The notes below the pieces were generated by a model that saw nothing but the letters and a program-made list of their open reading frames with translations, was not told where the DNA came from and ran no database searches. This document shows, one piece after another, positions 33,105 through 63,050 of a DNA stretch of 64,000 bases. Position 1 is the first letter of the stretch, and the number at the start of each line of letters is the position of its first letter. Position numbers and translations under genes: made by a program. Origin of the DNA: Sphingobium sp. KCTC 72723. GTDB taxonomy: Bacteria > Pseudomonadota > Alphaproteobacteria > Sphingomonadales > Sphingomonadaceae. Where the stretch lies: the NCBI RefSeq assembly GCF_014280435.1, contig NZ_CP060388.1, forward strand, positions 1,426,001 to 1,490,000, given 5' to 3'.

Positions 33105-33214
33105 TTCTGTAAACGTTGGATTTTCCGGCGCGCTTCGGCGTTGCCGGGTTTCGTCGTTCCGACTTTTTCCGACATGTCATTCCGACAAATCGCGATCCGA
33201 TCTGGCGGCGTCGG

Positions 33215-34438: not shown

Positions 34439-34685
34439 CCAGTCCCTCGAATTCGCTATCAATGTCGGTGGAGGTGCCGCCGAACAGATTGGCCGTCACC
34501 TTGTCCAGATGCTCGCGCAGATAGACCAGTTCACCATTGCGCCCGATTCGCCGGCCGGTCAGCGAGCCGGATGTCTCGAGGTGCGTGAACAGCTTGGGCG
34601 CCAGCCCGGTATATTGCAGGGCGGCGTCTCGGTTGAACGTGAGCGGCGGCGTGTTGAACGTCACCTGGCGCGCAGCGGCTCCCAT
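34431..34685 (-). CDS. Small HTH (excisionase-like) protein
   Basis: 84 residues. The core TFNRDAALQYTGLAPKLFTHLETSGSL reads as a MerR/Xis-type winged helix, with ELVYLREHLDKVTANLF after it. Its place directly before int and the overlap with int's start fit a recombination directionality factor. The call is from position and a weak HTH pattern. Confidence 0.6.
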   Translation of the reverse strand: MGAAARQVTFNTPPLTFNRDAALQYTGLAPKLFTHLETSGSLTGRRIGRNGELVYLREHLDKVTANLFGGTSTDIDSEFEGLGG

Positions 34686-49143: not shown

Positions 49144-49716
49144 ATGAGCGGGCATAGGGCAACAGATTGGTGTATCGTGCGCACGTCGAGCGCTGGGACA
49201 CTTGCCGTCGCCAGCGCGCTGGCAGACGCTGGCATTGAAGCATGGACACCCATCGGGATCGCGGTCAAGCGCGTGGGCAAGATGCGCGAGCGGGTCGAGC
49301 AGACTGCGCCGCTGATGCCCACATTCGCCTTTGCCCGCTATGACCGGATCGCAGATGTGCTGGCCATGGCGCACTCGCCGACGCCTTCATATCAGGTATG
49401 GGACAAGGATCAGCGCAGAATGGTTATGCGCGGATGCCCGTTCTTCAGGGTGTTCCGCCATGGTTTGACCTATCCTGCGGTGAGTGATCGTGAGCTTGAT
49501 CAGCTGCGCGTTGCTGAGCAACACGGCCGCCCAATTGAGCATGTGCGGATGTTCACGCCGGGCGAGGCGGTGCGGTGCGGTGACATGCCCAGCTTCGAAG
49601 GGCTGGTAGGCATTATCGAAGAGGTGCAGGGCAGCTATGCGCATGTGCGGTTTACTGGCTTTGGCGGACACGCCAGGGTGAAGGTCAATTCACGCCGCCT
49701 TCTATCGGCCGCTTGA
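49144..49716 (+). CDS. NusG-like transcription factor, possible late antiterminator
   Basis: 190 residues. The first 110 read as an NGN domain (WCIVRTSSAGTLAVASALAD, GIEAWTPIGIAVKRVGKMR, LMPTFAFARYDRI), and the last 60 as a KOW domain (PSFEGLVGIIEEVQGSYAHVRF). NusG paralogues such as RfaH and LoaP steer RNA polymerase through terminators. The place, last gene before cos and terS, is where lambda keeps Q. Function is inference. Confidence 0.65.
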   Translation: MSGHRATDWCIVRTSSAGTLAVASALADAGIEAWTPIGIAVKRVGKMRERVEQTAPLMPTFAFARYDRIADVLAMAHSPTPSYQVWDKDQRRMVMRGCPFFRVFRHGLTYPAVSDRELDQLRVAEQHGRPIEHVRMFTPGEAVRCGDMPSFEGLVGIIEEVQGSYAHVRFTGFGGHARVKVNSRRLLSAA

Positions 49717-50050: not shown

Positions 50051-50061
50051 CGCCGCCCCTC

Positions 50062-50138
50062 CCCCCCCCTGCCCTTGGGTCCTTCCGGGCGGATCTCCCT
50101 ATACGGGGGGCAAAGGCGCAGAAGCTCGCTAGCCACAG
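50062..50138. other. Putative cos (cosN) region of the prophage
   Basis: A 77-base segment just before terS recurs without gaps at 54086-54162, just before the satellite terS, with only five differences. It contains a run of C, GGGCGGATCTC (compare lambda cosN, which has GGGCGGCGACCT) and CTATACGGGGGGC. Position upstream of terS is that of cos in lambda-type phages. The 80 bases after it, before terS, do not match between the copies, as expected for TerS-specific binding sites. Confidence 0.7.
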
Positions 50139-50217: not shown

Positions 50218-50709
50218 ATGGACATCGACCTGAGCGAGCCGACCCGGCCACACCTTGCCGCTCTGTTCGGATGCTCCAGCCGCTGGATTGGCGAACTGCG
50301 ATCGAAGGGCGACCTGCCTGCGGATGGCGCTAGCTGGGCCGAAAACCTTGAGGCCTACGTCAGCATCAAGATCGGGCGGCATGATCCCGATGCCCTCGAT
50401 CTGGAATCGGAGCGCGCGCGCCTTGCCAAGGAACAGGCCGACGGCAAGGCCATGGACAATGCCGAGCGCCGCAAGGAGTTGGCGAACCGCACCGACATGA
50501 TCGCCGCAGGCGCGGGCGTCATCATCATGGCGGTTTCCCGGTTGCAGCAGGTCGGCGCGCAGGTGGCGCAGGGCGATGTGAAGCTGCGCAAGAGGATCGA
50601 AACCGCAATCAATGACGTGCTGACCGATCTTAGCATGACACGCATCGAGGAGGCGGTTGGCGGGGGCTTTGATGACGAAGACGCCCCCGGAGACGACGAC
50701 GAAGATTGA
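50218..50709 (+). CDS. terS: Prophage terminase small subunit (Nu1-like)
   Basis: 163 residues. An N-terminal winged-helix part (HLAALFGCSSRWIGELRSKGDLP) recognises DNA; a helical C-terminal part (MAVSRLQQVGAQVAQGDVKLRKRIE) should bind TerL. The acidic tail DDEDAPGDDDED is extra. The C-terminal half is closely similar to the satellite TerS at 54243-54725, the N-terminal half is not. Confidence 0.85.
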   Translation: MDIDLSEPTRPHLAALFGCSSRWIGELRSKGDLPADGASWAENLEAYVSIKIGRHDPDALDLESERARLAKEQADGKAMDNAERRKELANRTDMIAAGAGVIIMAVSRLQQVGAQVAQGDVKLRKRIETAINDVLTDLSMTRIEEAVGGGFDDEDAPGDDDED

Positions 50710-50988
50710 GGCGCTGCGCATCACCAGCGTTGACGGCGCGGTCGTCGCTCAGCACTGGCTGGCGGCTTTCGCTCCAAAGATGCGGCCGAAGCTGTCGCAG
50801 TTCATGTGCGACCACGCCCGGTCCGATGATGGCGCGAAGATCCGGCCGTTCCCCTTCCAGTCCGACATGGCGGACGCCTTCACCGACCCGGAAACGTCCC
50901 AGGTCTCCGTCCGTAAGAGCAGCCGCATCGGCTACTCCACAATCCTGCAATCGTTCGTCGCATGGCGCATCGCTTATGATCCGGCGCG
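50672..50988 (+). pseudogene. terL: terL, 5' part (interrupted terminase large subunit)
   Basis: From the ATG at 50672, overlapping terS by 38 bases. Encodes the TerS-binding N-terminus and the lambda gpA-type Walker A (VRKSSRIGYST). At IAYDPAR the phage sequence stops and satellite DNA begins; the frame then ends at 51079 after 30 foreign codons. Continues at 61370. Joined, the parts give 1,998 bases, exactly 666 codons. Confidence 0.92.
50980..50988. repeat. Satellite left attachment core (attL)
   Basis: TCCGGCGCG here and at 61361-61369 are the direct repeats at the two junctions of the inserted element. Phage coding sequence ends here and resumes in frame after the right copy. Confidence 0.8.
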
Positions 50989-51162
50989 GAAACTGATTAA
51001 TCCGCCAAAAAGAACCAATTACATCAATAATAACAGTACCTTAGGCTCGCTCCGGCGGGCCATTTTTTCATCCTTATAACCCCCAACCACCACAAGCCGA
51101 AAGGCTTAAGATTCAACTACTTACAATCAGGCGCGGCTGGCCCGTGTCGCAAGGAGTGTCGC

Positions 51163-51387
51163 ATGAGCGTTGCAAGAGACGATAAGCAATCTGACCTTTT
51201 AACGGGTGTCGCGGCGATTGCCGAGCACCTAGATTGGCCTGAGCGCAGAGTGCTTTACCAGCATGAAAAGGGCCTAATCCCTACATTCCGCCAAGGGCGT
51301 TTGATTTGCGCGCTCCGCTCCGCCCTCGCCGAGCATTTCGCCGAACAGACGCGCGCGGCGCGGGCAGGCAGCGATGCCAAGCCTTGA
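51163..51387 (+). CDS. Small HTH protein at the satellite left end
   Basis: 74 residues (AAGGAG six bases before the ATG). TGVAAIAEHLDWPERRVLYQHEKGLIPTFRQGRLICALRSAL is a MerR/AlpA-like winged helix. The C-terminal CALRSALAEHFAEQTR is repeated in the 59339 protein, down to the DNA level. Candidate excisionase or regulator. The 174 bases before it hold only the att flank. Confidence 0.65.
   Translation: MSVARDDKQSDLLTGVAAIAEHLDWPERRVLYQHEKGLIPTFRQGRLICALRSALAEHFAEQTRAARAGSDAKP
51307..51353. repeat. 47-bp direct repeat, left copy
   Basis: Matches 59579-59625 with one mismatch. Both lie in the 3' parts of HTH genes near the two ends of the satellite. Recombination between them would delete 8.27 kb, including cos, terS and all cargo. 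Confidence 0.85.
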
Positions 51388-51583
51388 GCTTACCGGCCGG
51401 GCCATCGTGCTTGACTGGCAAGGCCGAAGCATGATCCGCCTGCGCGTCCAGCCGCCCCGCATTGGCGGCTCTGACGATGCAGACCCAGCCGACGCGCTGT
51501 TCACCTCCGCCCTGACCGCCTCCCGCGCCGCTGGAGAGCTTTCCGTCGCCCACGGCTGGCCCATCGTCGCCGCCTTCGCCTGA
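51374..51583 (+). CDS. Small satellite protein
   Basis: 69 residues, overlapping the HTH gene by 14 bases. Mixed strand-helix pattern (TGRAIVLDWQGRSMIRLRVQPP, then LFTSALTASRAAGELSVAHGW). No family recognised. Confidence 0.5.
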   Translation: MPSLELTGRAIVLDWQGRSMIRLRVQPPRIGGSDDADPADALFTSALTASRAAGELSVAHGWPIVAAFA

Positions 51584-51630
51584 GCGCGCCCCTGAGCGGC
51601 CTCCCTGCCGCCCTCCCGAGGAAATGCCCC

Positions 51631-51876
51631 ATGAAGAAACGCCAATCCGGCGCGCATCGTCGCGGCCGGGCAGAAATCCATGCGCCCTATTGCCTCCTGA
51701 TCCGCCGCACCCGGTACGACTTCCGCGTCGATGTCAGACCGGATCATATCGACAGCGCCGCCATGAACCTGGGGTTCGACGCTCTCGCCGACGCTCGCGA
51801 CTATGCCGCCCGGCTGGCCGCCAGGCGCGGCTGGGAGGTGGACGATCGCACCACGCCGAGCGGTGCGGCCCAATGA
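51631..51876 (+). CDS. Small basic satellite protein
   Basis: 81 residues (GAGGAA upstream). Basic N-terminus (MKKRQSGAHRRGRAE), then a small alpha/beta domain (YCLLIRRTRYDFRVDVRPDH, DARDYAARLAARRGWEV). No family recognised. Its stop overlaps the ATG of a 22-residue reading frame. Confidence 0.5.
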   Translation: MKKRQSGAHRRGRAEIHAPYCLLIRRTRYDFRVDVRPDHIDSAAMNLGFDALADARDYAARLAARRGWEVDDRTTPSGAAQ

Positions 51877-51941
51877 GCGAGGCCGCCACCGCCGCCCTCA
51901 CCCGCACCATGCCAGCCGCGACGGGGGCGCACCTTGCATGA
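51873..51941 (+). CDS. 22-residue coupled reading frame
   Basis: ATG overlaps the previous stop and its own stop overlaps the next ATG (both ATGA). The peptide MSEAATAALTRTMPAATGA has no recognisable function. It may exist only to couple translation of the two larger genes. Confidence 0.3.
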   Translation: MSEAATAALTRTMPAATGAHLA

Positions 51942-52654
51942 GCTTTTCAGCCATCGCATGGGCGGCGACACAGGACACCGGAAACATGGCCGCCAAAATG
52001 GCTCTGCTCGCACTGGCCAACTGGGCAGACGATAGCGCCCGGGCTTTCCCATCGACCGCAGCCCTAGCCGCCTTCGGCAACATGGACGTTAAAACGGCGA
52101 TCACTGCTATTGCCCGGCTCGAGGCCATGGGCTTTGTGTCAGACACGGGCGAACGTCGCGGCCGGACCCGTCAAATCAAGGTCTATGCCATCAACCTTGA
52201 TCGACCGCCCGAAAAGGCAAAGGCCACCAAAAGCGGAACACTTCCGAAAACGGAAGACTTCCAAAAGCGGAACACTTCCGTTTTTCCCGGGGAAGACACC
52301 CGAAAACGGGTGACGGACACTATCAGGGACACGGTAGATATAGATGCTAACGCATCTATCCCCGAAGATGCCGAAATTGGGCATGAACCGGATGCCCTTA
52401 GACCAGAGCATTTCGTGGAAATATGGAACGCGCTTGCTGCCCGTCTGGGCAAGCCGTCAATCCGTAGCCTGACGCCCGAGCGCCGCCAGAAGCTCAAGGC
52501 GCGGATGGCTGAATATTCAATCGAAGACTTCAAGCAGGTGCTGGCCAGCATCGATCACTCCCCCTTCCTGCGCGACGGCCGGTTTCTCACCTTTGATTGG
52601 ATCATCGGCAAGGCCAATTTCCTCAAGGTGCTGGAAGGGAATTACAACCGATGA
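51938..52654 (+). CDS. Satellite replication initiator-like protein
   Basis: 238 residues. An N-terminal winged helix (KMALLALANWADDSARAFPS, NMDVKTAITAIARLEAMGFV) is of the O/RepA type. A basic linker follows, then a helical C-terminal domain (LRPEHFVEIWNALAARLGKPSI). The linker codons contain three 17-bp iterons, as lambda O contains ori. Likely the satellite's own replication initiator. Confidence 0.65.
   Translation: MSFSAIAWAATQDTGNMAAKMALLALANWADDSARAFPSTAALAAFGNMDVKTAITAIARLEAMGFVSDTGERRGRTRQIKVYAINLDRPPEKAKATKSGTLPKTEDFQKRNTSVFPGEDTRKRVTDTIRDTVDIDANASIPEDAEIGHEPDALRPEHFVEIWNALAARLGKPSIRSLTPERRQKLKARMAEYSIEDFKQVLASIDHSPFLRDGRFLTFDWIIGKANFLKVLEGNYNR
52227..52277. repeat. Three 17-bp iterons, candidate satellite origin
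   Basis: CCAAAAGCGGAACACTT, CCGAAAACGGAAGACTT and CCAAAAGCGGAACACTT lie head to tail. The first and third are identical. Seventeen is not a multiple of three, so the repeat is not kept for the protein. Each unit holds the partial palindrome CGGAA/TTCC. Position inside the initiator gene is like lambda ori. Confidence 0.7.
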
Positions 52655-53019
52655 AAGCAAACCCCCTTGGCAACGCACAAGCCATATCATCGGGCGGCTG
52701 GAGCGAGCAGCGCATGCTCGAATGGTGTCACGAGAACAACCGCTGGGCATACGACATCGGCATGCGCAGGTGGCATTACGTCCAATCGGGTCAAGACGGC
52801 AAGGCTGCGAATTTGCAGATGGTCGACGGCATCACCGCAGATGAAGTCTGGACGATCTCGCGCGGCAAGCATCTCGCTTATGCCAATTGGGCGCCGGAGC
52901 GCCTCGACAAGCTGGAGCGTCGCTGTCGCTGGCTGATCGAGCGCGGCATGCCGCCAGAAGCCTTCGCAACTCTCTGCGCCCGGCACGGCTGGGCTACACC
53001 CCGGAGTGCAGCAGCATGA
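52651..53019 (+). CDS. Satellite protein after the initiator gene
   Basis: 122 residues, ATGA overlap with the initiator gene. Aromatic-rich, small domain (GGWSEQRMLEWCHENNRWAY, RWHYVQSGQDGKAANLQMVDG). The C-terminal helix (RRCRWLIERGMPPEAFATLC) is basic. Possibly a replication accessory protein by position; no family recognised. Confidence 0.5.
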   Translation: MKANPLGNAQAISSGGWSEQRMLEWCHENNRWAYDIGMRRWHYVQSGQDGKAANLQMVDGITADEVWTISRGKHLAYANWAPERLDKLERRCRWLIERGMPPEAFATLCARHGWATPRSAAA

Positions 53020-53762
53020 CGAACATCGTCCCCTTTCATTTCGAGGATCACGCGCTCCGCGCCATCACCGACCACGATGGACAGGCTTGGTTTGTCCTGG
53101 CCGACATTTGCGGGATGCTGGGCCTTCGCAATCCGACCACGGCCGCAAAGCCGCTCGACCAGACGGAGAAGGCTAAGATTTTCCTAGGGTCGGGATCCGA
53201 TGCCACCATAGTCAGCCTCTCCGGCTTGCTCACGCTGATCGTGCGTTGCCGGGATGCCATGAAGCCCGGGACCCTGCCATACCGGGTGCGCAAATGGATT
53301 ACGGCTGAAGTCGTCCCAAGCATCATGAGAACCGGGCAATACGGCACTCCAGCCCCCGCGCTGGACCTGTACGATCCAGCCGTACTTAAACGCCTAGTCC
53401 ACGACCTATCGGGCATGGCCGTCAATGCAGGTGAGCGCATTGCCCAACTCGAACCCAAGGCTGCCGCCCTTGACCGGATCGCAGACGCCCAAGGCATGAT
53501 GTGCCTGACCGACGCGGCAAAGGCGTTGGGCGTCCCGCCGCGCAAACTGTCAGCGTGGATGGAGGGCGCAGGCTGGATATTCCGCAGGTCCGATGGCGGC
53601 CCCTATGTCGCCCACGGGAAGGCGCTGGCGGCGCACCTACTGGAACATAAGGGCTACACAGTCCAGCGACCCGGCAAGCCTGACAAGTGGGTTGCCCAGG
53701 TGATGGTGACACCGAAAGGGATGGCGCGCCTGGCCGAACTACGAGCGGGCACGGGAGGATAG
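53016..53762 (+). CDS. BRO-N / KilA-C type antirepressor
   Basis: 248 residues. A BRO-N domain opens the protein (VPFHFEDHALRAITDHDGQA, FVLADICGMLGLRNPTTAA, YRVRKWITAEVVPSIMRTG). A KilA-C-like domain closes it (MMCLTDAAKALGVPPRKLSAW, VAHGKALAAHLLE). In phages such proteins neutralise repressors. In a satellite it could derepress the helper or control its own genes. Confidence 0.8.
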   Translation: MTNIVPFHFEDHALRAITDHDGQAWFVLADICGMLGLRNPTTAAKPLDQTEKAKIFLGSGSDATIVSLSGLLTLIVRCRDAMKPGTLPYRVRKWITAEVVPSIMRTGQYGTPAPALDLYDPAVLKRLVHDLSGMAVNAGERIAQLEPKAAALDRIADAQGMMCLTDAAKALGVPPRKLSAWMEGAGWIFRRSDGGPYVAHGKALAAHLLEHKGYTVQRPGKPDKWVAQVMVTPKGMARLAELRAGTGG

Positions 53763-53818
53763 CCGCACACCTTTTCCCCGCCACTTGCGCCCCGAACATT
53801 CCACCTAAGGAGACGACG

Positions 53819-54028
53819 ATGACCACGGACACCAGCACCCCAACGCCCGAGACGCCCGCATGGGATTACGCACAGTTCGCCGCCCGAGAGTTCTGGCTAG
53901 ACCTAGGCCGCGAGATCAACGACCACACGATGGCGGCCACTGCCATGATCAACCTCGCCACGTCGATGTTGACGGAAACGCTGGGCTACACGGACGCGCC
54001 GGAAAGCCCTTGCGAGGCTACCCCCTAG
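53819..54028 (+). CDS. Small satellite protein before cos
   Basis: 69 residues (TAAGGAG upstream of ATG at 53819). N-terminal Thr/Pro-rich tail, then an amphipathic helix (EFWLDLGREINDHTMAATAM). It holds the same place relative to cos as the small protein at 49877-50050 in the prophage. Confidence 0.55.
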   Translation: MTTDTSTPTPETPAWDYAQFAAREFWLDLGREINDHTMAATAMINLATSMLTETLGYTDAPESPCEATP

Positions 54029-54085
54029 CCTGCATCATCAGTGTGAGACGATGGTGCCAGCCGATCCGGCAACGATGGCCGCCTG

Positions 54086-54162
54086 CCCCCCCCTGCCCTT
54101 GGGTCCTTCCGGGCGGATCTCGCTATACGGGGGGCAAAGGCGCACAATCTCTCTAGGCACAG
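54086..54162. other. Putative cos (cosN) copy carried by the satellite
   Basis: 72 of 77 bases match 50062-50138 with no gap. Flanking sequence on both sides does not match, so this is a conserved functional block and not part of a long duplication. It would let the helper TerL cut satellite DNA. Confidence 0.7.
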
Positions 54163-54242
54163 CCTCTCCTAAGGGGGGCATAATAATATTTGCCAAAACC
54201 ACCGGATTTGCTGAACTTTGCACCACCCGGAGAATAAATTTT

Positions 54243-54725
54243 ATGGCGACGCAATCGCAGGTCGCGGAACATCTCGACCTAAATCAGTCCACAGTCTCAA
54301 AATTGAAAGACAAGGGCGTTTTGCCCGATCGCGCCAAACCGGGGGGCTTCGATCTTGACGCCTGCCGCTTGGCCTACATTCGTCACCTGCGCACGGGTGC
54401 GGCCGGGCGCGACAGCACGAAGCCCGGAAGCCTTGAAGCCGAACGCGCACGGCTGGCGTCCGCGCAGGCCGAAGCGATCGAACGAAAGAACGCGATCGAG
54501 CGTGGCGACCTTGCATCCCGGCCCGATATGACGAACGCCTACGCTGGCGTCATCGAGATAGCCGTTTCACGCCTTCAGCGGGTAGGAGCCCAGGTCGCCA
54601 ATCAGGACTGGAAGCTGCGCAAGCGCATCGAAGACGCGCTGAACGATGTGCTTTCTGATTTGGCTAAGACGCCGATCGATCTCGCCCTCGCTGACCAAGA
54701 CGACGACCGCGAAGAAGGAGAATAG
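54243..54725 (+). CDS. Satellite terminase small subunit (Nu1-like)
   Basis: 160 residues. N-terminal HTH TQSQVAEHLDLNQSTVSKLK is unlike that of the prophage TerS. From AGVIEIAVSRLQRVGAQVAN to KLRKRIEDALNDVLSDL the two are closely similar, with VSRLQ.VGAQVA, KLRKRIE and NDVL in common. This split suits a protein that docks on the helper TerL but binds its own cosB. Confidence 0.85.
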   Translation: MATQSQVAEHLDLNQSTVSKLKDKGVLPDRAKPGGFDLDACRLAYIRHLRTGAAGRDSTKPGSLEAERARLASAQAEAIERKNAIERGDLASRPDMTNAYAGVIEIAVSRLQRVGAQVANQDWKLRKRIEDALNDVLSDLAKTPIDLALADQDDDREEGE

Positions 54726-54728
54726 GTT

Positions 54729-54902
54729 ATGGACGCCCCCAACAGCTCCAACCCGACAAACCGACATGAAGAGAGGCCCAGCGGCATAAAGGTCGCTAGC
54801 GCCGACGGGGCAGTCATCGCCCGCGCATGGCTTCGCGCATTCCGCCCCGTCCCTCAACCCCATCGGGAAGCCGATGAACGCCGGGATGGGCCGGAGGCCT
54901 AG
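54729..54902 (+). CDS. TerL N-terminal-like stub
   Basis: 57 residues, four bases after terS. IKVASADGAVIARAWLRAFRP lines up with LRITSVDGAVVAQHWLAAFAP of the prophage TerL N-terminus, the part that in lambda gpA binds the small subunit. It ends in a natural TAG before the ATPase region. It is either a relic of a longer terL or a short adaptor/decoy. Confidence 0.65.
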   Translation: MDAPNSSNPTNRHEERPSGIKVASADGAVIARAWLRAFRPVPQPHREADERRDGPEA

Positions 54903-54964
54903 CGCACGCGTGTGATTTGCGCCTTCGCCACAGATATGCGAGTTTCAGGGCAGAGGGGCGATTC

Positions 54965-55741
54965 ATGCAGGTGCTGCCAGTGACGAAAGGCGTAGGGCGA
55001 TCGACAACGGCCGGGACGCGCGGTCCTCGCTATGTCCCGCCAGCGGGCGCGGAAGCGGTGCCATTCTCGCGCTTGCTCGCCATGGGCGGGCGCGCCCAGA
55101 TGGAGCCGCGCCAAATCGACTTTCTGCGATCCGTCACCAAATCGGACGAGACGGGTGCAGGCCGGGTGTATGTGGCGGGCGACGTCGATCTTCTGTCCAA
55201 TCGCTGCATCGCTGTAATCGGCGCGCGCAAGGCGAGCGAGTTGGGCCGCAAGCGCGCCCGCCAGCTGGGGCGGCAACTCGCCGAGGCGGGGATAATCGTC
55301 ACCTCCGGGCTTGCGGAGGGCATCGACACCGAAGCGCTTACAGGTGCGATCGAGGCGGGCGGGCGCGTCGTCGCTGTCATCGGAACTCCGCTGGACAAAG
55401 CCTATCCGGCTGGCAACCGGGAATTGCAGGAAGCGATTTACCGCGACCACCTGCTAATTTCCCAGTTCGCGACGGGGGAGAGGGTCTTTCCCTCAAACTT
55501 CCCGGCCCGCAACCGGACCATGGCCGCCCTGTCAGATGCAAGCGTGGTCATTGAGGCTTCCGATTCATCTGGCACTCTGCATCAGGCGGTAGAGTGCCAA
55601 CGTCTGGGGCGCTGGTTGGTCATCGCTCGCAATGTGGTAGAAAACCCGGACCTGACGTGGCCCGCAAAGTTTCTGGCATCGCCGCGAACGACGATCCTAG
55701 ATAGCACGGCTAAATTGATCGGGGATGTCTACCCGGCATGA
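54965..55741 (+). CDS. DprA/SLOG-family protein
   Basis: 258 residues (GAGGGG before the ATG). The Rossmann-like DprA core is complete: CIAVIGARKASELGRKRARQ, VTSGLAEGIDTEALTGAIEAGG, VVAVIGTPLDKAYPAGN and FPARNRTMAALSDASVVIEAS. No C-terminal winged helix follows. Chromosomal DprA loads RecA on transforming DNA; mobile-element members of the SLOG superfamily often pair with nucleotide enzymes and may sense or process nucleotides. Coupled to the PRTase gene by ATGA. Confidence 0.8.
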   Translation: MQVLPVTKGVGRSTTAGTRGPRYVPPAGAEAVPFSRLLAMGGRAQMEPRQIDFLRSVTKSDETGAGRVYVAGDVDLLSNRCIAVIGARKASELGRKRARQLGRQLAEAGIIVTSGLAEGIDTEALTGAIEAGGRVVAVIGTPLDKAYPAGNRELQEAIYRDHLLISQFATGERVFPSNFPARNRTMAALSDASVVIEASDSSGTLHQAVECQRLGRWLVIARNVVENPDLTWPAKFLASPRTTILDSTAKLIGDVYPA

Positions 55742-56391
55742 GCCTGATGGTGCATTCGTACTGCGGATATCCCAGCTATGAGGGATTAACCGCATGGAAC
55801 GGCAGCGACCATGACGCGCATATGTTCGTGCAAACGCTTAAGGGGCGTGCCATCAATGGCTATGTCACCCTTCGCAAACCGAGCGGTCCGTGGGTCAGAT
55901 TCACGACCGAGACGCCGCAACCTGCCTTCGATATCTGGAGCGAATGGGCTGGCGCACTAGCGCTCCGATTGCTGCCAGGCGGAGGCCTCATAGTTCCTGT
56001 CCCGTCGTCCGATTGCCTCGCAATAGGTGCAGACGCCAAGGGCAAAAAGCTGGCCGATCATGTCGCGTTGCGAGCGCCAGGGTTCACGGTCGCAGAGGCG
56101 CTGCATTGGGAAGAGCAGTGGCAGAAGGCCAGCGAAGGCGGGCCGCGCGATCCCGGCATCCTGTTCGAAAATATCCGTGTGGAAGACGCCCTGCCCAAAC
56201 ATGAAGTTATCCTGATTGACGACGTAGCGACTACGGGTGGCCACCTAATTACCGCCGCCCGAGCGATGCGCTGGGCAGGCCATCGGGTGCGCTTCGCAAT
56301 CTGCGCCGCGTCCACCGTTAAGACGCGGCCGGAGCGAGGGATTTTCACCATCGCCACGCGGGACCTCGAAGCGGACCCGTTGGAGCTTTAG
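55738..56391 (+). CDS. Phosphoribosyltransferase-like protein
   Basis: 217 residues, ComF/type I PRTase fold. The PRPP loop is VILIDDVATTGGHLITAA, preceded by GLIVPVPSSD and a flexible hood. The N-terminal 80 residues are extra. It is translationally coupled to the DprA-like gene, so the two probably act together, perhaps as a nucleotide-based defence module. Confidence 0.75.
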   Translation: MSLMVHSYCGYPSYEGLTAWNGSDHDAHMFVQTLKGRAINGYVTLRKPSGPWVRFTTETPQPAFDIWSEWAGALALRLLPGGGLIVPVPSSDCLAIGADAKGKKLADHVALRAPGFTVAEALHWEEQWQKASEGGPRDPGILFENIRVEDALPKHEVILIDDVATTGGHLITAARAMRWAGHRVRFAICAASTVKTRPERGIFTIATRDLEADPLEL

Positions 56392-56397
56392 CCGCGG

Positions 56398-56895
56398 TCA
56401 GCCGGCTGGTGCTGCGCCTTCCATTGCATCTGGCGCTTTCACAGAGCTGAATATTTCGACCCGGTCATCGCCGATGCCTGCAACCGTCAACGACCACTGC
56501 GGAAAGGCTGCGAAACGCTCAAAGTCTCGCGTCACTGGCTCGCCGGTCCGAAGCGAGATATAGATTTCTTCATAATTGTAGCGCGCCGATAGGCAGGTCT
56601 CACCGTTGACGATGCAGATCGATCCGGGTGGAATGTCGCCTTTGAAGGGGCTGGCAACAATCCCGGTGTCCACTGACACGGCTGCATCGTCCGCGACAAG
56701 CCAAGGGCCGTCGTTGGTGGCGCCCATTACCATGAACCGCCGGTGTCCCTCGCCGCCCAAGGTAATAACTGAGGGCTTGCCCTCAACCGCGCACCGAAAC
56801 GTCGGAGCTTCCTTATAGCGCGTCGGACAAAGCAGCCAGGTGCCGGGCGCAGACTGCATGACATCGGTCATGGTCAAGTTCTTGATCGGGATCAT
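56398..56895 (-). CDS. Satellite cargo protein of unknown function
   Basis: 165 residues from the ATG at 56895 (AAAGGA upstream). All-beta pattern (GTWLLCPTRYKEAPTFRCAV, CIVNGETCLSARYNYEEIYIS). Convergent with the PRTase gene, seven bases apart. AT-richer than neighbours. Confidence 0.6.
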   Translation of the reverse strand: MIPIKNLTMTDVMQSAPGTWLLCPTRYKEAPTFRCAVEGKPSVITLGGEGHRRFMVMGATNDGPWLVADDAAVSVDTGIVASPFKGDIPPGSICIVNGETCLSARYNYEEIYISLRTGEPVTRDFERFAAFPQWSLTVAGIGDDRVEIFSSVKAPDAMEGAAPAG

Positions 56896-56915
56896 GTCTT
56901 TCCTTTGGGCGAGGG

Positions 56916-57398
56916 TTAGGCTTTTGGACGATCGATGAAACCGTAGACTGATACCAGCGCCTCTTTCAGCGCCGCCCGGACGGCTGGCAGGTCGTGGCAT
57001 CCTTCAGGCCGTGAAGCGAACACATCACCTTCATCCGGCATCATACCCACCGTGATCTCGTTTCCATCGTGCGTTATCGTGACGCACAGCCCTGCCACCC
57101 CATATGTCCCGCTGTTATCAGCGCGCGCCTTGTTCCCGAATATCTGAAAAGAGAGGATGGGCGGAATAAGCGGATACTCGGTCCAGCTTTCCTTAATCTC
57201 GACCCGCAAACCCCGCGCTTCATATGCGCGCCGAGCGTCATCTAGTATCGGCTGAACCTTCATCTCCAAAAACGACCGACCGATAACTGCCAAATGGTGT
57301 TGATCGAATAACTCGTCGAGATTCTCGACAACCCCCTGATTTAGCCGTTCCTGCCGCTGCCTCTCAAATTCGTCTGCGAAATCATCAAATTCACTCAT
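56916..57398 (-). CDS. Satellite cargo protein of unknown function
   Basis: 160 residues. Charged N-terminal helix (EFDDFADEFERQRQERLNQG) and an alpha/beta rest (VQPILDDARRAYEARGLRVEI). It precedes the 56398 gene by 20 bases; the two form a small operon. No family recognised. Confidence 0.6.
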   Translation of the reverse strand: MSEFDDFADEFERQRQERLNQGVVENLDELFDQHHLAVIGRSFLEMKVQPILDDARRAYEARGLRVEIKESWTEYPLIPPILSFQIFGNKARADNSGTYGVAGLCVTITHDGNEITVGMMPDEGDVFASRPEGCHDLPAVRAALKEALVSVYGFIDRPKA

Positions 57399-57452
57399 CG
57401 ACGCTGATCCCTCATCATGTAGCCCGCTCCATTGCGCAATCCTGCCTGGCCG

Positions 57453-57641
57453 CTACCGCACAGATCCGTGCAACCGGAGGAATGCCAGCAAGGCCTTGCC
57501 ATCTTCCGTCGGCGCACGCTTCAATCCATGGCAGCGCGGGCACTGAACTGCCGTCTGCATGAATGTCGCCGTCTTGACGCCGCCCACCTTGCCCTCGCCG
57601 CCGCATTCCGGGCATTCCTCATCGAGGGGAGGCAGGGTCAT
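57453..57641 (-). CDS. Small DnaJ-type zinc-finger protein
   Basis: 62 residues with CPECGGEG and CPRCHGLK, the CxxCxG pair of a DnaJ-like zinc finger. ATGA overlap with the BrnA-like stop. Confidence 0.6.
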   Translation of the reverse strand: MTLPPLDEECPECGGEGKVGGVKTATFMQTAVQCPRCHGLKRAPTEDGKALLAFLRLHGSVR

Positions 57642-57889
57642 GGCTGCGCCCTCCGCAGCGCATCATTGACCCGCGTCTGCCACCCCGCCCCGGTCGCCCG
57701 GAACTTCGCCAGCACGTCCACGTCCAGCCGCAGCGTCACCTGCTCCTTGCCCGGACCCGACGGGGGGCGGCCCATGCGCTTGCGGCGCTCCGCCAGCCCA
57801 TGCTGCAATGCTTTCTCGGTAACGTCGAAATCGTCGGGATCGCTGGGATCAGCCGGGATCGCTATTGTAGTATTCGGCTTCCTTGCCAT
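57638..57889 (-). CDS. BrnA-type antitoxin
   Basis: 83 residues. DFDVTEKALQHGLAERRKRM and the ribbon-helix-helix KEQVTLRLDVDVLAKFRATG then GWQTRVNDALR match BrnA. It lies downstream of brnT and overlaps it by 41 bases. Confidence 0.85.
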   Translation of the reverse strand: MARKPNTTIAIPADPSDPDDFDVTEKALQHGLAERRKRMGRPPSGPGKEQVTLRLDVDVLAKFRATGAGWQTRVNDALRRAQP

Positions 57890-58124
57890 TGCTTTTCCTC
57901 ACAGAAATGAAGCGGGCCACTGGCCCTCGCATGACGTAAACGGCCGTCCATAACCGGCCCTCAACATCGCCGATCACCTTTTGACGATCCTCGCCGTCAA
58001 CCGCTCGGGCCGATGACAGGATCAGGTGAGCAGCATCCTCGAACACCTTGACCCCATGCGCCAATGAAACGCCATGTTTGGCGAGATTTGCAGCATTCTT
58101 CTCGGGGTCAAACTCGATGTCCAT
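57849..58124 (-). CDS. BrnT-type ribonuclease toxin
   Basis: 91 residues from the ATG at 58124; an ATG at 58130 is equally possible. DIEFDPEKNAANLAKHGVSL, then RLWTAVYVMRGPVARFISVRKS and KEAEYY, are the BrnT core with its basic and aromatic catalytic residues. BrnT is an RNase neutralised by BrnA. Likely a maintenance or anti-phage module of the satellite. Confidence 0.85.
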   Translation of the reverse strand: MDIEFDPEKNAANLAKHGVSLAHGVKVFEDAAHLILSSARAVDGEDRQKVIGDVEGRLWTAVYVMRGPVARFISVRKSNGKEAEYYNSDPG

Positions 58125-58206
58125 GGCCATTATGTAACTACACATGTCGGCGCGGTCAATCACATTCGTAACTACAAAATGCGATGAATTGAGCGCGCAC
58201 GAAAAG

Positions 58207-58234
58207 AACCCCGCTTGCAAGGCAGGGTTTTTCC
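58207..58234 (-). terminator. Bidirectional-type terminator hairpin
   Basis: AACCC/GGGTT stem with a second GC/GC part around TTGCAAG; T-rich on the plus side (TTTTT) and TTCTTTTC on the minus side. It could end a minus-strand RNA coming from the structured region to its right. Confidence 0.5.
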
Positions 58235-58494
58235 GTTCACTGTAGAAGGTGAGTGTAAGAGCTCGGACCAGTGATAGGCGATCCGACCCGTTGGAGCGGG
58301 AATGATCGCCGAAGACGAACAGCGGGGGTTGGCGCCCTTTGCTGACCGGACCATTATGTCCGGGAGTGGGGCGCTATACAATACCCTCTGGGGAAATCGT
58401 CCCACCTGTCTCACTGGCAGGCTCTTACCCTCCCGGCACCGTGGCGGAACCCACGGAACACCGGCTGTAAGAGGCCAAAACCAGTGAGCAAACC
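58235..58494. ncRNA. Highly structured regulatory region, possible non-coding RNA
   Basis: No gene in 260 bases, but three strong stems: GGCGATC/GATCGCC (58277-58310, with CCCG/CGGG inside), GCGCCC/GGGCGC (58332-58374) around CCGGAC/GTCCGG, and CCGTGG/CCACGG (58439-58456). A motif GTAAGAG-N5-8-CCAGTGA occurs three times: plus at 58255-58274 and 58467-58487, minus at 58411-58428. It separates the leftward BrnTA side from the rightward int operon. It may be an RNA, an operator array or both. Confidence 0.5.
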
Positions 58495-58761
58495 ATGATC
58501 AACTTTAGGTATGATCGGGCGCGGCAAAGTGCTGCCCCCGCAATCCATTTCCTACACGGCCGCGACCTGGCCGCACGGATCGAACGATCCTGCGCCACGG
58601 CTGGCATCACACCATCGCGATTCGGGCGGGATGCCGTTGGCGACCCGGCGCTTGTCGCGGACCTGATGACCGGACGGCGCAACATGCGCGAGCAGACCCG
58701 CGTCCGTGTGCTGGCCGCCCTCACCCGCATGGAGAGCGGAAAGGCGGTGCGCCATGCTTGA
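58495..58761 (+). CDS. Small HTH-like satellite regulator
   Basis: 88 residues. LAARIERSCATAGITPSRFG, DAVGDPALVADLMTGRRNMR is a phage-type HTH. First gene of the int operon; the third copy of the GTAAGAG/CCAGTGA motif ends eight bases before its ATG. Confidence 0.6.
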   Translation: MINFRYDRARQSAAPAIHFLHGRDLAARIERSCATAGITPSRFGRDAVGDPALVADLMTGRRNMREQTRVRVLAALTRMESGKAVRHA

Positions 58762-59002
58762 CCTCAAGATCAAAGCGGCTGGCCGCACCCTCGCCCCTGC
58801 TGACCTCCCCGGCGCGATCGGCGCAGCCCTCGCCTACCGCGAGCTTGGCGATCTGGTCGAAAGCCTCATCGGGCAAATGGTGGCCCTCGCTCCTTTCGTC
58901 GCCGAGGATACAGCCCTTGCAACGGATGGGCGCGCCCTCGCCGATGGCGATTACGCCCACCGGAGCCTTGCCCGCTTCCTCGACCGGAGGGCAGCGGCAT
59001 GA
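58754..59002 (+). CDS. Small satellite protein
   Basis: 82 residues from the ATG at 58754, overlapping the previous gene by eight bases. Helical and acidic (PGAIGAALAYRELGDLVESL). No family recognised. Confidence 0.5.
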   Translation: MLDLKIKAAGRTLAPADLPGAIGAALAYRELGDLVESLIGQMVALAPFVAEDTALATDGRALADGDYAHRSLARFLDRRAAA

Positions 59003-59283
59003 CCCAAACGATCGACCGCACCGGCCGCCCGCTGTTCTTCCCGCCTTCCATGGACATGGACGACGCGGGTATGATCATCCCCCGCCCCTTCGATGAACTG
59101 GCGCTGTTTGCCGCCAACATCGCGCCGCACGAACTGTTCCCGTTCATTCGGAGACTGATCAACGGCACCAGCCGACGGCGCAATCATGCCAAATGGGCAG
59201 CCGTCAACGAGCAGCGCCTGCTGCTGGCCCGCCTCTGCATAGAGCGCGCCATGACAGACGGGACACTGGCCCGCCCTCACTGA
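58999..59283 (+). CDS. Small satellite protein
   Basis: 94 residues, ATGA overlap. FDELALFAANIAPHELFPFI and RRRNHAKWAAVNEQRLLLAR suggest a compact helical domain with a basic face. No family recognised. Confidence 0.5.
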   Translation: MTQTIDRTGRPLFFPPSMDMDDAGMIIPRPFDELALFAANIAPHELFPFIRRLINGTSRRRNHAKWAAVNEQRLLLARLCIERAMTDGTLARPH

Positions 59284-59338
59284 CACAACCGCCCCGCCCG
59301 GATCGGCTGGGCGGGGCCTCCCATGGAGGATCACGATC

Positions 59339-59656
59339 ATGACGACACCCACACTATTGCGGCCGCAATACAAGCCGTTCGACGTTGACGCATGGCGGCG
59401 AGAGAATGACGCCCCAGATCCGGCGATAAAACTCGCTCCAGCCCATGCATCAGCCAATTACAGCGACCTGATTTATGGCCTTGAAGCCATAGCCGATTTT
59501 GTCGGCCTGACGGTAGCCCAGGTGAAGCATCAGATATCAATTTCCGGCTGGCCGACCTTCAAACAGGGCCGCACCGTCTGCGCGCTCCGCTCCGCCCTCG
59601 CCGAGCATTTTGCCGAACAGACGCGGCTGGCGATGCAGAACCGGAAGGGCGGCTGA
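59339..59656 (+). CDS. HTH protein, partial paralogue of the left-end protein
   Basis: 105 residues. The C-terminal half (YGLEAIADFVGLTVAQVKHQ, GWPTFKQGRTVCALRSAL) is an AlpA/MerR-like winged helix that matches the 51163 protein; the N-terminal 45 residues are different. Contains the right copy of the 47-bp repeat. Confidence 0.65.
   Translation: MTTPTLLRPQYKPFDVDAWRRENDAPDPAIKLAPAHASANYSDLIYGLEAIADFVGLTVAQVKHQISISGWPTFKQGRTVCALRSALAEHFAEQTRLAMQNRKGG
59579..59625. repeat. 47-bp direct repeat, right copy
   Basis: Matches 51307-51353 with one mismatch; same orientation. Confidence 0.85.
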
Positions 59657-59657
59657 T

Positions 59658-60128
59658 ATGGCGACCCTCGCACCCTGGCACCTGCGCGACGACGATCGGG
59701 TCTATGGCCTCGATCGGTTGGCCGCGTGGTTGGCCTTCCCCTTCCTGCACACCCGCATGATGGTCCGGGAGGGGTATCTGCCCCACCGGCGTGAAGGCCG
59801 CTCCATCTACATCAGCAAGGCTGAAGCGATAGCGCACTTCGACGCGACGGAGGCGGCCAAGTGCCGCCCCGACGCGATCGCGGCGCGGCTGGCGGGGGAG
59901 CCTGATGTAATAGCGGGCACGGCTGACATCGCGGCGCATCTGGGCATGAGCCTGCCTCAGCTGCGCCACCATTATCTCCGCAACGGCGTCCCGCTGTTCC
60001 AGATCGGCCGGACGCCCTACGCGCGCCGGCCTTCCCTCAACCTATGGGCGACGGCGCTGGGCAGCATGTCCGGCTGGGACCGCCGCCGCGCACGCAAGGA
60101 AGGAGCCGACCATGGCCAACGTCTCTAA
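59658..60128 (+). CDS. Double-HTH protein before the satellite integrase
   Basis: 156 residues with two winged-helix-like units: YGLDRLAAWLAFPFLHTRMM with LPHRREGRSIYI, and VIAGTADIAAHLGMSLPQLR with GVPLFQIGRTPYA. This is the AlpA/excisionase pattern, doubled. It overlaps the integrase start by 17 bases, so it may direct excision from terL. Confidence 0.65.
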   Translation: MATLAPWHLRDDDRVYGLDRLAAWLAFPFLHTRMMVREGYLPHRREGRSIYISKAEAIAHFDATEAAKCRPDAIAARLAGEPDVIAGTADIAAHLGMSLPQLRHHYLRNGVPLFQIGRTPYARRPSLNLWATALGSMSGWDRRRARKEGADHGQRL

Positions 60129-61341
60129 ACGCCGCTGGACCTATAAGGGCGTCGACAAAGAGGCTTGGATTGTCCGCTACAGGGACATGAAGGGCACCTA
60201 TCGGCAAAAGACCTTCGACAAAAAGAAGGATGCGGATCGCTTTCGTACGAAGGTGGAAACCGAGATCGAAAACGGCACCCATATTCCGGCCGCCGACAGC
60301 CGGACCGTGGATGCCGCGTCCAAGCTGTTCCTCGAAGAGATAGAGCATAAGGTGTCGATCGGCGCGCTACGCCCCAGCACCGGCAAGAACTACCAGCACG
60401 CATTTGCTAACGCCATCTTGCCGGGCCTTGGTGGCAAGCTGCTAATTGACGTTCAGCCCCTCGACGTTGAGCGGTGGTATCGCGATCTTATCAAGGCGAG
60501 CAACCTACATCCTCGTACCGCACATCGTCGCCTGTGGTTCCTCAAGGCCATGTTTCGTTTCGCGATCAGGCGTAAATGGATGCGCGAAAACCCGGTCCTC
60601 GATGCGATGGAGGCGATCGGGCGGCCGAAAGAGGCGAAGATCGAGATATTCGCCTTGGAGGATGTCCGGGCCGTCATTCAATGCGCCAACAATCGACCAT
60701 ACAGGGCGCATGACCGAGCGTTTCAGATGGCGCGGCTGGCCGTGAACCTCGCCGCCTTTTGCGGCTTGCGGTGGGGTGAGATATTCGGCCTCACCCTCGC
60801 CAACGTTGACCTTCAGCGGCAAACGATCCGGGTTGCGCATACCATTGATGGGCTAGGCAACCTACAAGAGCCGAAAACGGCGGCTGGCAACCGAACCGTG
60901 CCTCTGCCCGATCATATAGCCCTTCAACTCACCGAATGGCTGGCGACTTATCCCACGGCCAGTACACGCGGACTCGTTTTTGCCACGAAGAACGGCCAGA
61001 ACATGTGGGCGGGCAACTTTCGGGATCAGCAATGGGTGCCGCTGTTGAAACGGGCGGGCATCGCGGATCGCAACGGCAGCAACCTGCATTTTCACGCGCT
61101 GCGCCATTTCGCGGTGAGCTGGATGATCGAAAATAGCTGGCCGATCACCGACGTTGCTGCGATCGTCGGACATGCAAATGTGTCCATCACGCTCAAAACA
61201 TATGCGCACGTCGTGAAGGGCCGCCAGCAGTCGGCGGAGGCCATGCAGAGCCTCGCTCAAAAGCTCCTCATGGGCGCGCCGGTTGCGCAACAGCAGATCG
61301 CGCACGTTGCAAGAGCGTCGCATGAGACGCTAAACCACTGA
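60112..61341 (+). CDS. Satellite tyrosine recombinase (integrase)
   Basis: 409 residues. Catalytic set: Arg in FCGLRWGEIF, HxxR in HALRHFAVS, His in IVGHANVS and Tyr in LKTYAHV. The N-terminal arm (YKGVDKEAWIVRYRDMKGTY) and SAM-like domain are normal. It differs clearly from the prophage integrase. The gene ends 19 bases from attR, as for an integrase that serves its adjacent site, so it is the enzyme that would target terL. Confidence 0.93.
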   Translation: MANVSKRRWTYKGVDKEAWIVRYRDMKGTYRQKTFDKKKDADRFRTKVETEIENGTHIPAADSRTVDAASKLFLEEIEHKVSIGALRPSTGKNYQHAFANAILPGLGGKLLIDVQPLDVERWYRDLIKASNLHPRTAHRRLWFLKAMFRFAIRRKWMRENPVLDAMEAIGRPKEAKIEIFALEDVRAVIQCANNRPYRAHDRAFQMARLAVNLAAFCGLRWGEIFGLTLANVDLQRQTIRVAHTIDGLGNLQEPKTAAGNRTVPLPDHIALQLTEWLATYPTASTRGLVFATKNGQNMWAGNFRDQQWVPLLKRAGIADRNGSNLHFHALRHFAVSWMIENSWPITDVAAIVGHANVSITLKTYAHVVKGRQQSAEAMQSLAQKLLMGAPVAQQQIAHVARASHETLNH

Positions 61342-61360
61342 AAAATATCCATACATAGCG

Positions 61361-61369
61361 TCCGGCGCG
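61361..61369. repeat. Satellite right attachment core (attR)
   Basis: Second copy of TCCGGCGCG. The base after it (61370) completes the codon CGA and terL continues in frame (R-T-L-I-Y-Q-P). Confidence 0.8.
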
Positions 61370-63050
61370 AACGCTCATCTACCAGCCGACAATCGATGAC
61401 GCTGAGAAGTTCAGCCGAGACGATCTCGATCCGGTTTTGCAATGGTCGGTTGTTCGCAAGGTAGCCCAGTTCAAGCCGCGCCATTCGGATAACCAGATCC
61501 GGGCGAAGCGCTACAAGGGCGGCTGGATACAGATCAAGGGCGCGAACAGCCCCAAGGAATTCCGGCGCGTCACATCTGACGACGTGTTTCTGGAGGAATG
61601 CGACGGCTACCCATGGGCCACCAAGGAAGAAGGCGACCCGGCCCGCCTGGCATATAAGCGCAACCTGACATCGCCGCGCCGGTTCAGTGCGGCTGGCTCC
61701 ACGCCCAAGGTCAAGGGCTTCAGCCGCATCGACATGATGTTCGAGCAGGGCAGCCAGGAATATCGCTACGTCCCTTGCCCTGATTGCGGTCATATGCAGA
61801 CGCTTGTTTTTGGCGACGGCACGGGCACCGGAATCCGATGGGCACCGAAGGAAAACCCGACGCGCGCTTGGTATCAGTGCGAGAATGGATGCGAGATCGC
61901 CGAGGCTGAGAAGCCTTGGATGGACGAAAACGGCGAATGGCGGGCGCATAATCCCGGCGCGTTCCCCCGCCACCGCTCCTTTCACATCTGGGCGGCTTAC
62001 AGTCAGCATCCCGGCGCGGCGTGGCTGGAAATAGCGCGCGAGTTCATGGAGGTTCGCAAGGACCCGAACCTGCTCCGCACCTTTGTAAATCAGGTGCTGG
62101 GCGAGGCATGGGCCGAACGCGGTGAAGCGCCGGAATGGCAGCGCCTCTATGACCGTCGGGAGAAGGGGATGCGGCTGGGAACGCCCCCGGACTGGGCCGG
62201 ACTTTTGATCGGCGCGGCTGACGTCCAGCGGGGCGGCGGTGGCCGCATCGACATGGATATCTGGGCCTTCGGGCCTGGCAAGCGCCGGGCGTTTGTCGAA
62301 CGTATCGAAGTGTTCGGGCCGATCGCGGACAAGCGCACCTGGGCTAAGCTCGATCAGGAAGTTTCGCGGACGTGGGAAACGGAAGATGGCCGCCGGATGC
62401 GACTTGCGCGCGTGGCAGTCGATTCCGGCGACGGCGAGAATACCATGGAGGTCTATCAGTGGGCGCGCCGCCACCCTGGATTTGCCATGGCGGTGAAGGG
62501 GCGTGAGAGCATCGCCGCCCAGCAGGCGATCGGCAGCCCCAGCTGGCAGGATGTGACGGTCAACGGACGCAAGCTCAAACGCGGCGTCCGGCTGTGGAAC
62601 ATCGGCACGTCGATGTTGAAAATGGAACTCTACGGCCAGCTTGGCCTGGATAAACCTGTCGACGGCGAAGATTACCCCGACGGCTATATCTATCTGCCCG
62701 ACGGGCTTGGCGATGAGTGGATCAAGCAGCTGGTCGCCGAAGAGCTGCGGTTTGTGAAGCTGCGCAACGGCGGCATACGGCGCGAATGGCACAAGGTCAG
62801 AGATCGCAATGAAGCCCTTGATAATGCGATCTATGCCCGCGCGGTGTCCGTGAGCTTGGGCATAGATCAGTGGAAACCGAAACAGTGGGCGCGGGCCATG
62901 GGCGAGAACACCGTCCCGAAGGATGCTCCAGACATAGATCCAGAAGCGGCATCGCCCGCAGAATCTGCCGCGACACTGCCCAGCAAACCTAAAACCGAGC
63001 GCCGCGCCAAGCAGCGCCGGGAGAACCCTTACACGAGCAGGAGGCGGTAG
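61370..63050 (+). pseudogene. terL: terL, 3' part (interrupted terminase large subunit)
   Basis: Continues the frame from 50988. Carries the Walker B-like VFLEECDGYP, the zinc site CPDCGHMQ...CENGCE, and the RNase H-type nuclease domain starting IGAADVQRGGGG. This is the GpA/lambda type. From its own TTG at 61437 it could still make a nuclease-containing fragment without Walker A, but not a working motor. Confidence 0.92.

What the first reader, a model, noticed from the sequence alone, without database searches (positions are those of the whole stretch)
50989..61369. A phage satellite integrated inside the terminase large subunit gene of a resident prophage
Sequence shows: terL is split at codon DPAR by 10,381 bp with a 9-bp direct repeat (TCCGGCGCG) at both joints, and removing the element gives a 666-codon frame with no lost or gained base. 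The element has its own integrase 19 bases from attR, initiator, antirepressor and terS but no structural genes. Known: PICI and P4-type satellites carry int, rep and terS-like genes and take helper capsids, usually from chromosomal sites. Inference: by using terL as att site the satellite disables the resident helper and restores it only on excision, so packaging capacity is tied to satellite release. I know of no named family with this att site.
Basis: partly seen in the sequence, partly recalled or inferred. Interest (0 to 1): 0.96.

Follow-up and report, generated by a model that had tools for sequence, protein, structure and literature searches.

The report
Satellite nested inside phage packaging gene
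A 10.4-kb DNA element sits inside the DNA-packaging motor gene of a resident virus in a sphingomonad bacterium; it is a likely viral parasite, predicted to jump out when the virus wakes and to ride in its particles, and relatives of its integrase lie beside cut head, packaging or tail genes of other bacterial viruses.

Summary
Confirmed: a GpA-type terL is split by 10,381 bp with TCCGGCGCG at both joints. In five relatives the two parts run on without a gap at the joint. The host prophage measures 50.6 kb and lies in tRNA-Leu.
The kind is named already: helper-embedded PICIs (HE-PICIs) of Enterobacteriaceae, with a terL among their sites (PMC10111431).
New here: an apparently separate, alphaproteobacterial lineage. 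Its integrases stand apart from the HE-PICI integrase, which lies at the opposite end of its element. In 32 of 53 related loci the gene right after the integrase is a clearly 5'-truncated head, packaging or tail gene; both halves were found in 11 of these.
The element carries its own terS and, before it, 63 of 66 bases of a block upstream of the helper terS. Helper and element share such a block in three of three further pairs examined: a candidate cos site. Cargo includes a ShosTA-like pair.
Likely mechanism: excision after induction makes terL whole again, and the helper terminase packages the satellite. Excision and packaging are inferred.

The parts
33051..33106 (+). left att of the helper prophage: 56-bp repeat at the 3' end of tRNA-Leu; second copy at window-scale 93995-94050 (genome 1519995-1520050)
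33215..34462 (-). helper prophage tyrosine integrase next to tRNA-Leu
   Evidence: PF00589 2.7e-07
49144..49716 (+). helper transcription antiterminator just upstream of the late genes
   Evidence: phrog_6386 4e-23
50058..50123 (+). helper cos-like block upstream of terS (candidate packaging site)
   Evidence: 63 of 66 bases shared with the element; related block upstream of terS in L004, L006, L007
50218..50709 (+). helper terS
   Evidence: phrog_57 4.3e-14
50672..50988 (+). 5' part of helper terL (GpA type), holds the VRKSSRIGYS stretch
   Evidence: 57.8-84% identical to relatives L006, L046, L092, L004, L045
50980..50988 (+). left att core TCCGGCGCG
50989..61369 (+). the embedded element, 10,381 bp (counts one copy of the core)
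51163..51387 (+). small ORF at the left end; similar ORFs in many related loci; AlpA-like role guessed by place only (Pfam AlpA not matched)
   Evidence: phrog_18541
51938..52654 (+). replication initiator (O-like, HTH_36)
   Evidence: PF13730 and phrog_1032/11896
52597..53019 (+). unknown ORF, 64% identical in the L045 element
53016..53762 (+). Bro-N/ANT antirepressor
   Evidence: PF03374 1.7e-20, PF02498 3e-10
54082..54147 (+). satellite copy of the cos-like block
   Evidence: 63 of 66 bases identical to 50058-50123
54246..54725 (+). satellite terS (45% identical to helper terS over 143 aligned positions)
   Evidence: phrog_57 2.5e-26
54729..54902 (+). remnant of a terL start (57 codons; 26 residues align with helper terL)
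   Evidence: E 5e-07
54917..55741 (+). DprA-like, ShosA (defence cargo)
   Evidence: PF02481 5.3e-48; PADLOC ShosA 2.5e-63
55738..56391 (+). phosphoribosyltransferase-like, ShosT-like
   Evidence: PADLOC ShosT 1.8e-06; PF00156 under its cut-off
57638..57889 (-). BrnA-like antitoxin
   Evidence: phrog_4692 2e-21
57849..58220 (-). BrnT toxin
   Evidence: PF04365 5e-20
59339..59656 (+). second small ORF of the phrog_18541 kind, upstream of int
60112..61341 (+). satellite tyrosine integrase, 19 bases from the right core
   Evidence: PF00589 5.3e-27; phrog_1
61361..61369 (+). right att core TCCGGCGCG
61370..63050 (+). 3' part of helper terL (rest of ATPase, nuclease)
   Evidence: PF05876 and PF20454
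63270..64000 (+). helper portal start; portal rest, protease/capsid and tail fibre genes follow outside the window

Best explanation
The 10,381-bp element lies inside terL of a 50.6-kb tRNA-Leu prophage and is a likely phage satellite, predicted to excise by its own integrase after induction so that terL is whole again and to be packaged by the helper terminase. Shown: the split gene, the uninterrupted gene in five relatives, and an element with integrase, replication initiator, antirepressor, terS and a near-copy of the helper block upstream of terS, with no other head or tail gene found. Shown: related integrases abut truncated late genes of other phages or prophages. Inferred: the block is the cos site; late transcription, driven through the antiterminator upstream of terS, runs into the satellite; its TerS with the helper TerL directs satellite DNA into helper heads; the ShosTA-like pair gives the lysogen phage defence. 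It works like an HE-PICI but comes, by present evidence, from another integrase clade with the opposite polarity.
For: Clean split with the empty site in 5 relatives. Prophage bounded by a 56-bp tRNA-Leu repeat, with portal, protease/capsid and tail fibre genes. cos-like block 63 of 66 identical while the aligned 616-base stretch that holds it and terS is 60% identical; a shared helper/element block also in the three other GpA-terL elements whose helper side I fetched (L045, L046, L092; three of six), with a terS match after the element's copy in two of them, L046 and L092. Of 53 integrase-related loci, 32 have a clearly 5'-truncated head, packaging or tail gene right after the integrase, 7 an adjacent gene not clearly cut (one of unknown function), 14 no call. 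Both halves were found in 11 of the 32; inserts about 9.4-16.6 kb. L010, with a 55% identical integrase, is cut within a few codons of the same terL place. A distant member, L074, assembles as a circle.
Against: No reads or cultures: excision, circle, replication and packaging were not seen for this element. The 9-bp core is barely beyond chance (15 of 300 shuffles); of 11 cores tested only 5 were never reached by shuffles, L050 is out of phase and L048 ambiguous. The cos assignment rests on place and conservation only, and in L045 no terS match follows the element's block. The family is mixed: L080, L104 and L105 carry capsid genes, L045 a capsid-like ORF by eye. L074 also carries a capsid match. 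No control set of other integrases was run for the late-gene adjacency.
Confidence: 0.8

Rival explanations
1. It is simply a member of the published HE-PICI family that has spread to sphingomonads.
For: Same lifestyle, same class of target genes, Bro-N/ANT gene, similar size (PMC10111431).
Against: The integrase has no BLASTP match to the 11capE integrase at E up to 10 and falls elsewhere in the tree; int is downstream, not upstream; no primase and no Pfam AlpA found. The tree is a quick one with long reference branches.
Confidence: 0.12
2. A dead insertion: an unrelated island landed by chance in a decaying prophage and nothing excises.
For: The 9-bp repeat is weak; the satellite terL start is a relic; no activity data.
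Against: Many hits of one integrase group on late genes, equal reading phase in most mapped cases, open ORFs on both sides, shared cos-like block, bounded helper with late genes.
Confidence: 0.1
3. The element serves the host: a defence island (ShosTA-like, BrnTA) that keeps the prophage from killing the cell by breaking terL, with satellite mobility lost or minor.
For: Defence-type cargo; broken packaging motor; a DprA/PRTase pair also in L052.
Against: Own terS and cos-like copy point to packaging; integrase and replication gene are open.
Confidence: 0.15
4. The true helper is another phage acting in trans and the resident prophage is only a landing site.
For: Other satellites are helped in trans (PMC10111431); TerL is absent until excision.
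Against: The cos-like block matches this prophage at 63 of 66; the own genome has no second TerL match at E 1e-100 or better.
Confidence: 0.2

Closest known systems
HE-PICI (helper-embedded PICI), type 11capE of E. coli NRG857c (PMC10111431; L111)
   Same: Satellite-sized element inside a late gene of a lambda-type prophage, key genes co-oriented with it; an integrase clade that repeatedly picks late genes; Bro-network gene; a terL of Terminase_1 type is one published site.
   Different: Here Alphaproteobacteria, integrase apart from 11capE's, int at the downstream end (11capE: upstream end), O-like initiator instead of primase, GpA-type terL (the published site list was seen only in the text, not in the figure), own terS with cos-like copy (the paper says that 11capE lacks terS but shares a 258-bp cos-region stretch with its helper).
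Gram-negative PICI
   Same: Size, integrase plus a small left-end gene, replication gene, dependence on helper heads (inferred).
   Different: No Pfam AlpA, no primase found, not at a chromosomal site.
Satellite P4 with P2
   Same: Small satellite with integrase; a variable defence hotspot next to cos in P4 and P2-like phages (PMC9122126, passages seen).
   Different: P4 sits in tRNA genes (recalled) and has its own primase (L128); its integrase lies apart in the tree.
cf-PICI (capsid-forming PICI; seen only in paper listings; otherwise recalled)
   Same: Some relatives here carry capsid genes (L080, L104, L105).
   Different: None found in the window element.

Membership tests
HE-PICI | embedded in a late gene of a prophage, integrase co-oriented with it | tested here: met
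HE-PICI | integrase of the HE-PICI clade | tested here: not met
   quick tree (long branches, one HE-PICI integrase only), no BLASTP match to 11capE
HE-PICI | int at upstream end, followed by AlpA | tested here: not met
   int is the last gene; 11capE int is first and its neighbour matches Pfam AlpA, ours does not
HE-PICI | Bro-network gene | tested here: met
   PF02498/PF03374
HE-PICI | primase replication zone | tested here: not met
   only an O-like initiator
HE-PICI | doubled TGTATTGC motif around attP | not tested
   the motif was read in the paper only
HE-PICI | excision after induction of the composite | not testable with these tools
   needs cultures or reads
phage satellite (general) | integrase and replication gene but no complete head/tail gene set | tested here: met
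phage satellite (general) | packaging signal shared with helper | tested here: inconclusive
   block 63 of 66 shared; its being cos is inferred
phage satellite (general) | transfer in helper particles | not testable with these tools
   needs cultures
ShosTA pair | DprA-like ShosA beside a PRTase ShosT | tested here: met
   the ShosT match is weak (1.8e-06)

The most novel reading that the evidence does not exclude
Helper-embedded satellites arose at least twice: the Alphaproteobacteria hold a second, unrelated class whose integrases moved among terL, portal, protease, capsid and minor tail genes of prophages, with mirrored gene order and a copied cos-terS cassette, so that breaking and re-making a helper late gene is a convergent way for satellites to tie their release to the helper's late phase.
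Probability: 0.7. Interest if true: 0.75.

Novelty: new variant of a known kind. Interest (0 to 1): 0.62.

Why it matters
The one paper on helper-embedded satellites that my searches found maps them in Enterobacteriaceae and saw phage surroundings only among Enterobacterales when it looked at the top five integrase matches per group. A second integrase group with the same tropism would turn an oddity into a convergent strategy and lets one ask why such integrases choose late genes. The paired cos-like blocks make packaging theft testable by short deletions, and the pattern offers a way to find satellites in genomes: look for late genes cut next to an integrase.

Tried and rejected
Rejected: a chance repeat alone (relatives show the empty site); a normal part of intact phages (L004 and L006 have the gene unbroken; the integrase is in 3 of 397 family genomes at E 1e-60, own included); a tRNA target for the satellite kin (3 of 53 loci held any tRNA, none within 2 kb of the integrase).

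Led nowhere: the viral-contig scan with the satellite TerS found no relative; paper searches with Alphaproteobacteria or Sphingomonas and satellite terms found one unrelated preprint and nothing. The portal profile search did not complete, so 5' halves of split portals were not sought. The careful tree was not finished; the quick one is used. L053 and L085 begin close to the TerL start and were not counted as clearly truncated. L047, L066, L084 and L101 gave no profile match, although by eye their short ends look like capsid or terminase ends. L038, L041, L049, L054, L073, L074, L076, L088, L090 and L093 were not scanned; L041 and L073 look like transposase neighbours by eye. Background integrase loci (family score under 300, or no score) and duplicate records were left out of the 53. 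There was no control set of other integrases.
Full report
Observation. The window lies in a two-contig genome. It is a sphingomonad by inference: G231, of the own family, holds a contig of the same length and integrase as L036, titled Sphingomonadaceae. terL is cut at 50988/61362 by 10,381 bp. Both joints bear TCCGGCGCG. The repeat alone proves little (10 copies in the window, 4.45 expected). The proof is comparative: the left part (57.8-84% identical) and the right part (87-99%) match the same unbroken gene in L004, L006 and in the helper terL genes of L045, L046 and L092 at adjoining coordinates. The 5' part keeps the VRKSSRIGYS stretch that aligns with VVKSARVGYS of lambda gpA; most of the ATPase profile and nearly the whole nuclease profile are in the 3' part. 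The split gene therefore cannot be expected to make a working motor (inference).

The helper. A 56-bp repeat of the tRNA-Leu 3' end bounds a 60,944-bp composite, 50,563 bp without the element. It has an integrase beside the tRNA, an antiterminator before terS, portal, a protease/capsid ORF and a tail fibre ORF. Of eight right-hand ORFs scanned these three were clear; three gave no match, one an unknown-function family, and one unknown-function families with a weak tail match. Lysis genes were not looked for. No second TerL at E 1e-100 or better was found in the own genome.

The element. Order from left: small ORF, O-like initiator, unknown ORF, Bro-N/ANT antirepressor, cos-like block, terS, terL start relic, DprA/PRTase (ShosTA-like by PADLOC), unknown reverse ORFs, BrnTA, small ORFs, integrase. 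Of 18 element ORFs scanned with PHROGs only terS matched a head-and-packaging family and none a tail family.

The packaging block. Upstream of terS the helper has a block of which 63 of 66 bases recur upstream of the satellite terS, while the aligned 616-base stretch that includes terS is 60% identical. Related blocks stand upstream of terS in L004, L006 and L007. I then took the helper side of three of the six other GpA-terL loci: in all three, L045, L046 and L092, helper and element share a block (L045 83% over 105 columns, L046 74% over 65, L092 66% over 321, which runs into terS). A terS match follows the element's block in L046 and L092, none was found in the L045 element. Place and sharing suggest cos; no cut was mapped.

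The integrase family. Scans with the alignment A1 gave 30 loci in genome contigs and 71 in viral contigs. After dropping duplicates and background integrases 53 loci remain besides the window; L043, L081 and L054 have nearly the same integrase. Nineteen of the 53 are genome contigs, 18 of them titled as genera that I know to be Alphaproteobacteria and one 'Proteobacteria bacterium'; 34 are viral contigs of untold host, L010 among them being the same contig as a Sphingomonadaceae MAG. Right after the integrase, 32 of 53 have a gene whose profile match starts well inside the profile: GpA-type terL 6 (L010, L037, L045, L046, L089, L092), Terminase_1-type terL 6 (L042, L044, L050, L052, L096, L102), portal 8 (L043, L051, L077, L081, L087, L091, L097, L098), protease 4 (L039, L048, L068, L080), capsid or virion structural 6 (L011, L072, L079, L094, L104, L105), minor tail 2 (L069, L106). 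Seven more have an adjacent gene that is not clearly cut or, for L055, of unknown function (L040, L053, L055, L075, L083, L085, L103). Fourteen gave no call: four scanned without match and ten not scanned. Both halves were found in 11 of the 32 (L039, L044, L045, L046, L048, L050, L052, L080, L092, L104, L105). Cores of 7-19 bp lie 19-70 bp after the integrase; of 11 tested (the window and ten others, not L044) ten have a core in equal phase on both sides, L048 only for one of two candidates, and L050 has none; where two left frames qualified (window, L046, L092, L039) one of them agrees; five of 11 cores were reached by none of 300 shuffles. Inserts measure about 9.4 to 16.6 kb. Two records of one further locus, L136/L137, found through the antirepressor and not the integrase, also seem by eye to sit in a terL.

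Known kind or new. Paper searches found HE-PICIs (PMC10111431; [quoted passage not shown] The authors saw phage surroundings only among Enterobacterales in the top five hits per group. The 11capE locus, fetched as L111, shows int first, then an AlpA-type gene, primase and its own capsid gene. The window integrase has no BLASTP match to the 11capE integrase at E up to 10. In a quick tree the 52 loci with whole integrases, the window, eight metagenome proteins and one background row stand on one side of a branch (62 rows, SH-aLRT 94), 11capE, P4 and lambda integrases elsewhere; long branches make the place of 11capE unsure. Target labels, the reference group included, are clustered overall (17 changes, shuffled mean 25.0, 0 of 200 as low). 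Singly, GpA-terL (2 of 500 shuffles as low) and Terminase_1-terL (7 of 500) are clustered, protease (31) and capsid (47) weakly, portal (147) not; GpA-terL needs 4 changes, so the same gene seems to have been taken more than once. Gene order is mirrored against 11capE. Hence: works like an HE-PICI, not shown to be one. A search for 'helper-embedded' found three papers and 'HE-PICI' one; the review PMC11389934 mentions satellites in prophages and cites the same work (passages seen). I found no report of alphaproteobacterial cases in my searches; papers outside the held library were not searched.

Mechanism. Shown: architecture, empty sites, shared block. Inferred, following what was shown for 11capE: the composite is induced, late transcription through the antiterminator reaches the satellite, integrase excises it, terL is whole again, and the terminase with satellite TerS packages satellite DNA from its own cos-like site. 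While embedded, the satellite would block helper packaging, so helper release would depend on satellite exit. The ShosTA-like pair may guard the lysogen; a DprA/PRTase system of P2-like phages gave protection from T7 and lambda (PMC9122126, passages seen).

Caveats. No excision data, no control set for late-gene adjacency, cores within reach of chance in six of 11 cases, and a mixed family: L080, L104 and L105 hold inner capsid matches, L048 an inner protease match, L044 an inner terL match with one stop, and L045 a capsid-like ORF by eye, which resembles the late-gene capture described for HE-PICIs.

Noticed in passing
L074 (IMGVR_UViG_3300041409_000962): A 10,425-bp contig with a 70-bp end repeat, so a likely circle, carries a family integrase followed by the small left-end ORF (an attP-like join), a capsid match and a tape-measure-like ORF by eye: a possible excised member.
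   Followed up: partly
L045:3663-8245: The closest relative element carries, by eye, a protease/capsid-like and a tape-measure-like ORF; a satellite with its own tape measure might set tail length.
   Followed up: no
L044, L048, L104, L105: Elements that cut terL, protease or capsid genes hold an inner, more complete match to the same kind of gene (some with one stop inside the match).
   Followed up: partly
L072 and L104 (one record, 87,768 bp): Two integrase-bearing elements in one record, both next to capsid gene fragments: perhaps two satellites in one prophage region.
   Followed up: no
L052:6773-8165: A DprA/PRTase pair like that of the window in another terL-embedded element (70% and 33% identity).
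   Followed up: no
window 35313-36878 (-): DNA methyltransferase-like ORF in the early part of the helper prophage.
   Followed up: no
window 54729-54902: A 57-codon terL start left behind after the satellite terS, as if a cos-terS-terL cassette was captured and then cut down.
   Followed up: partly
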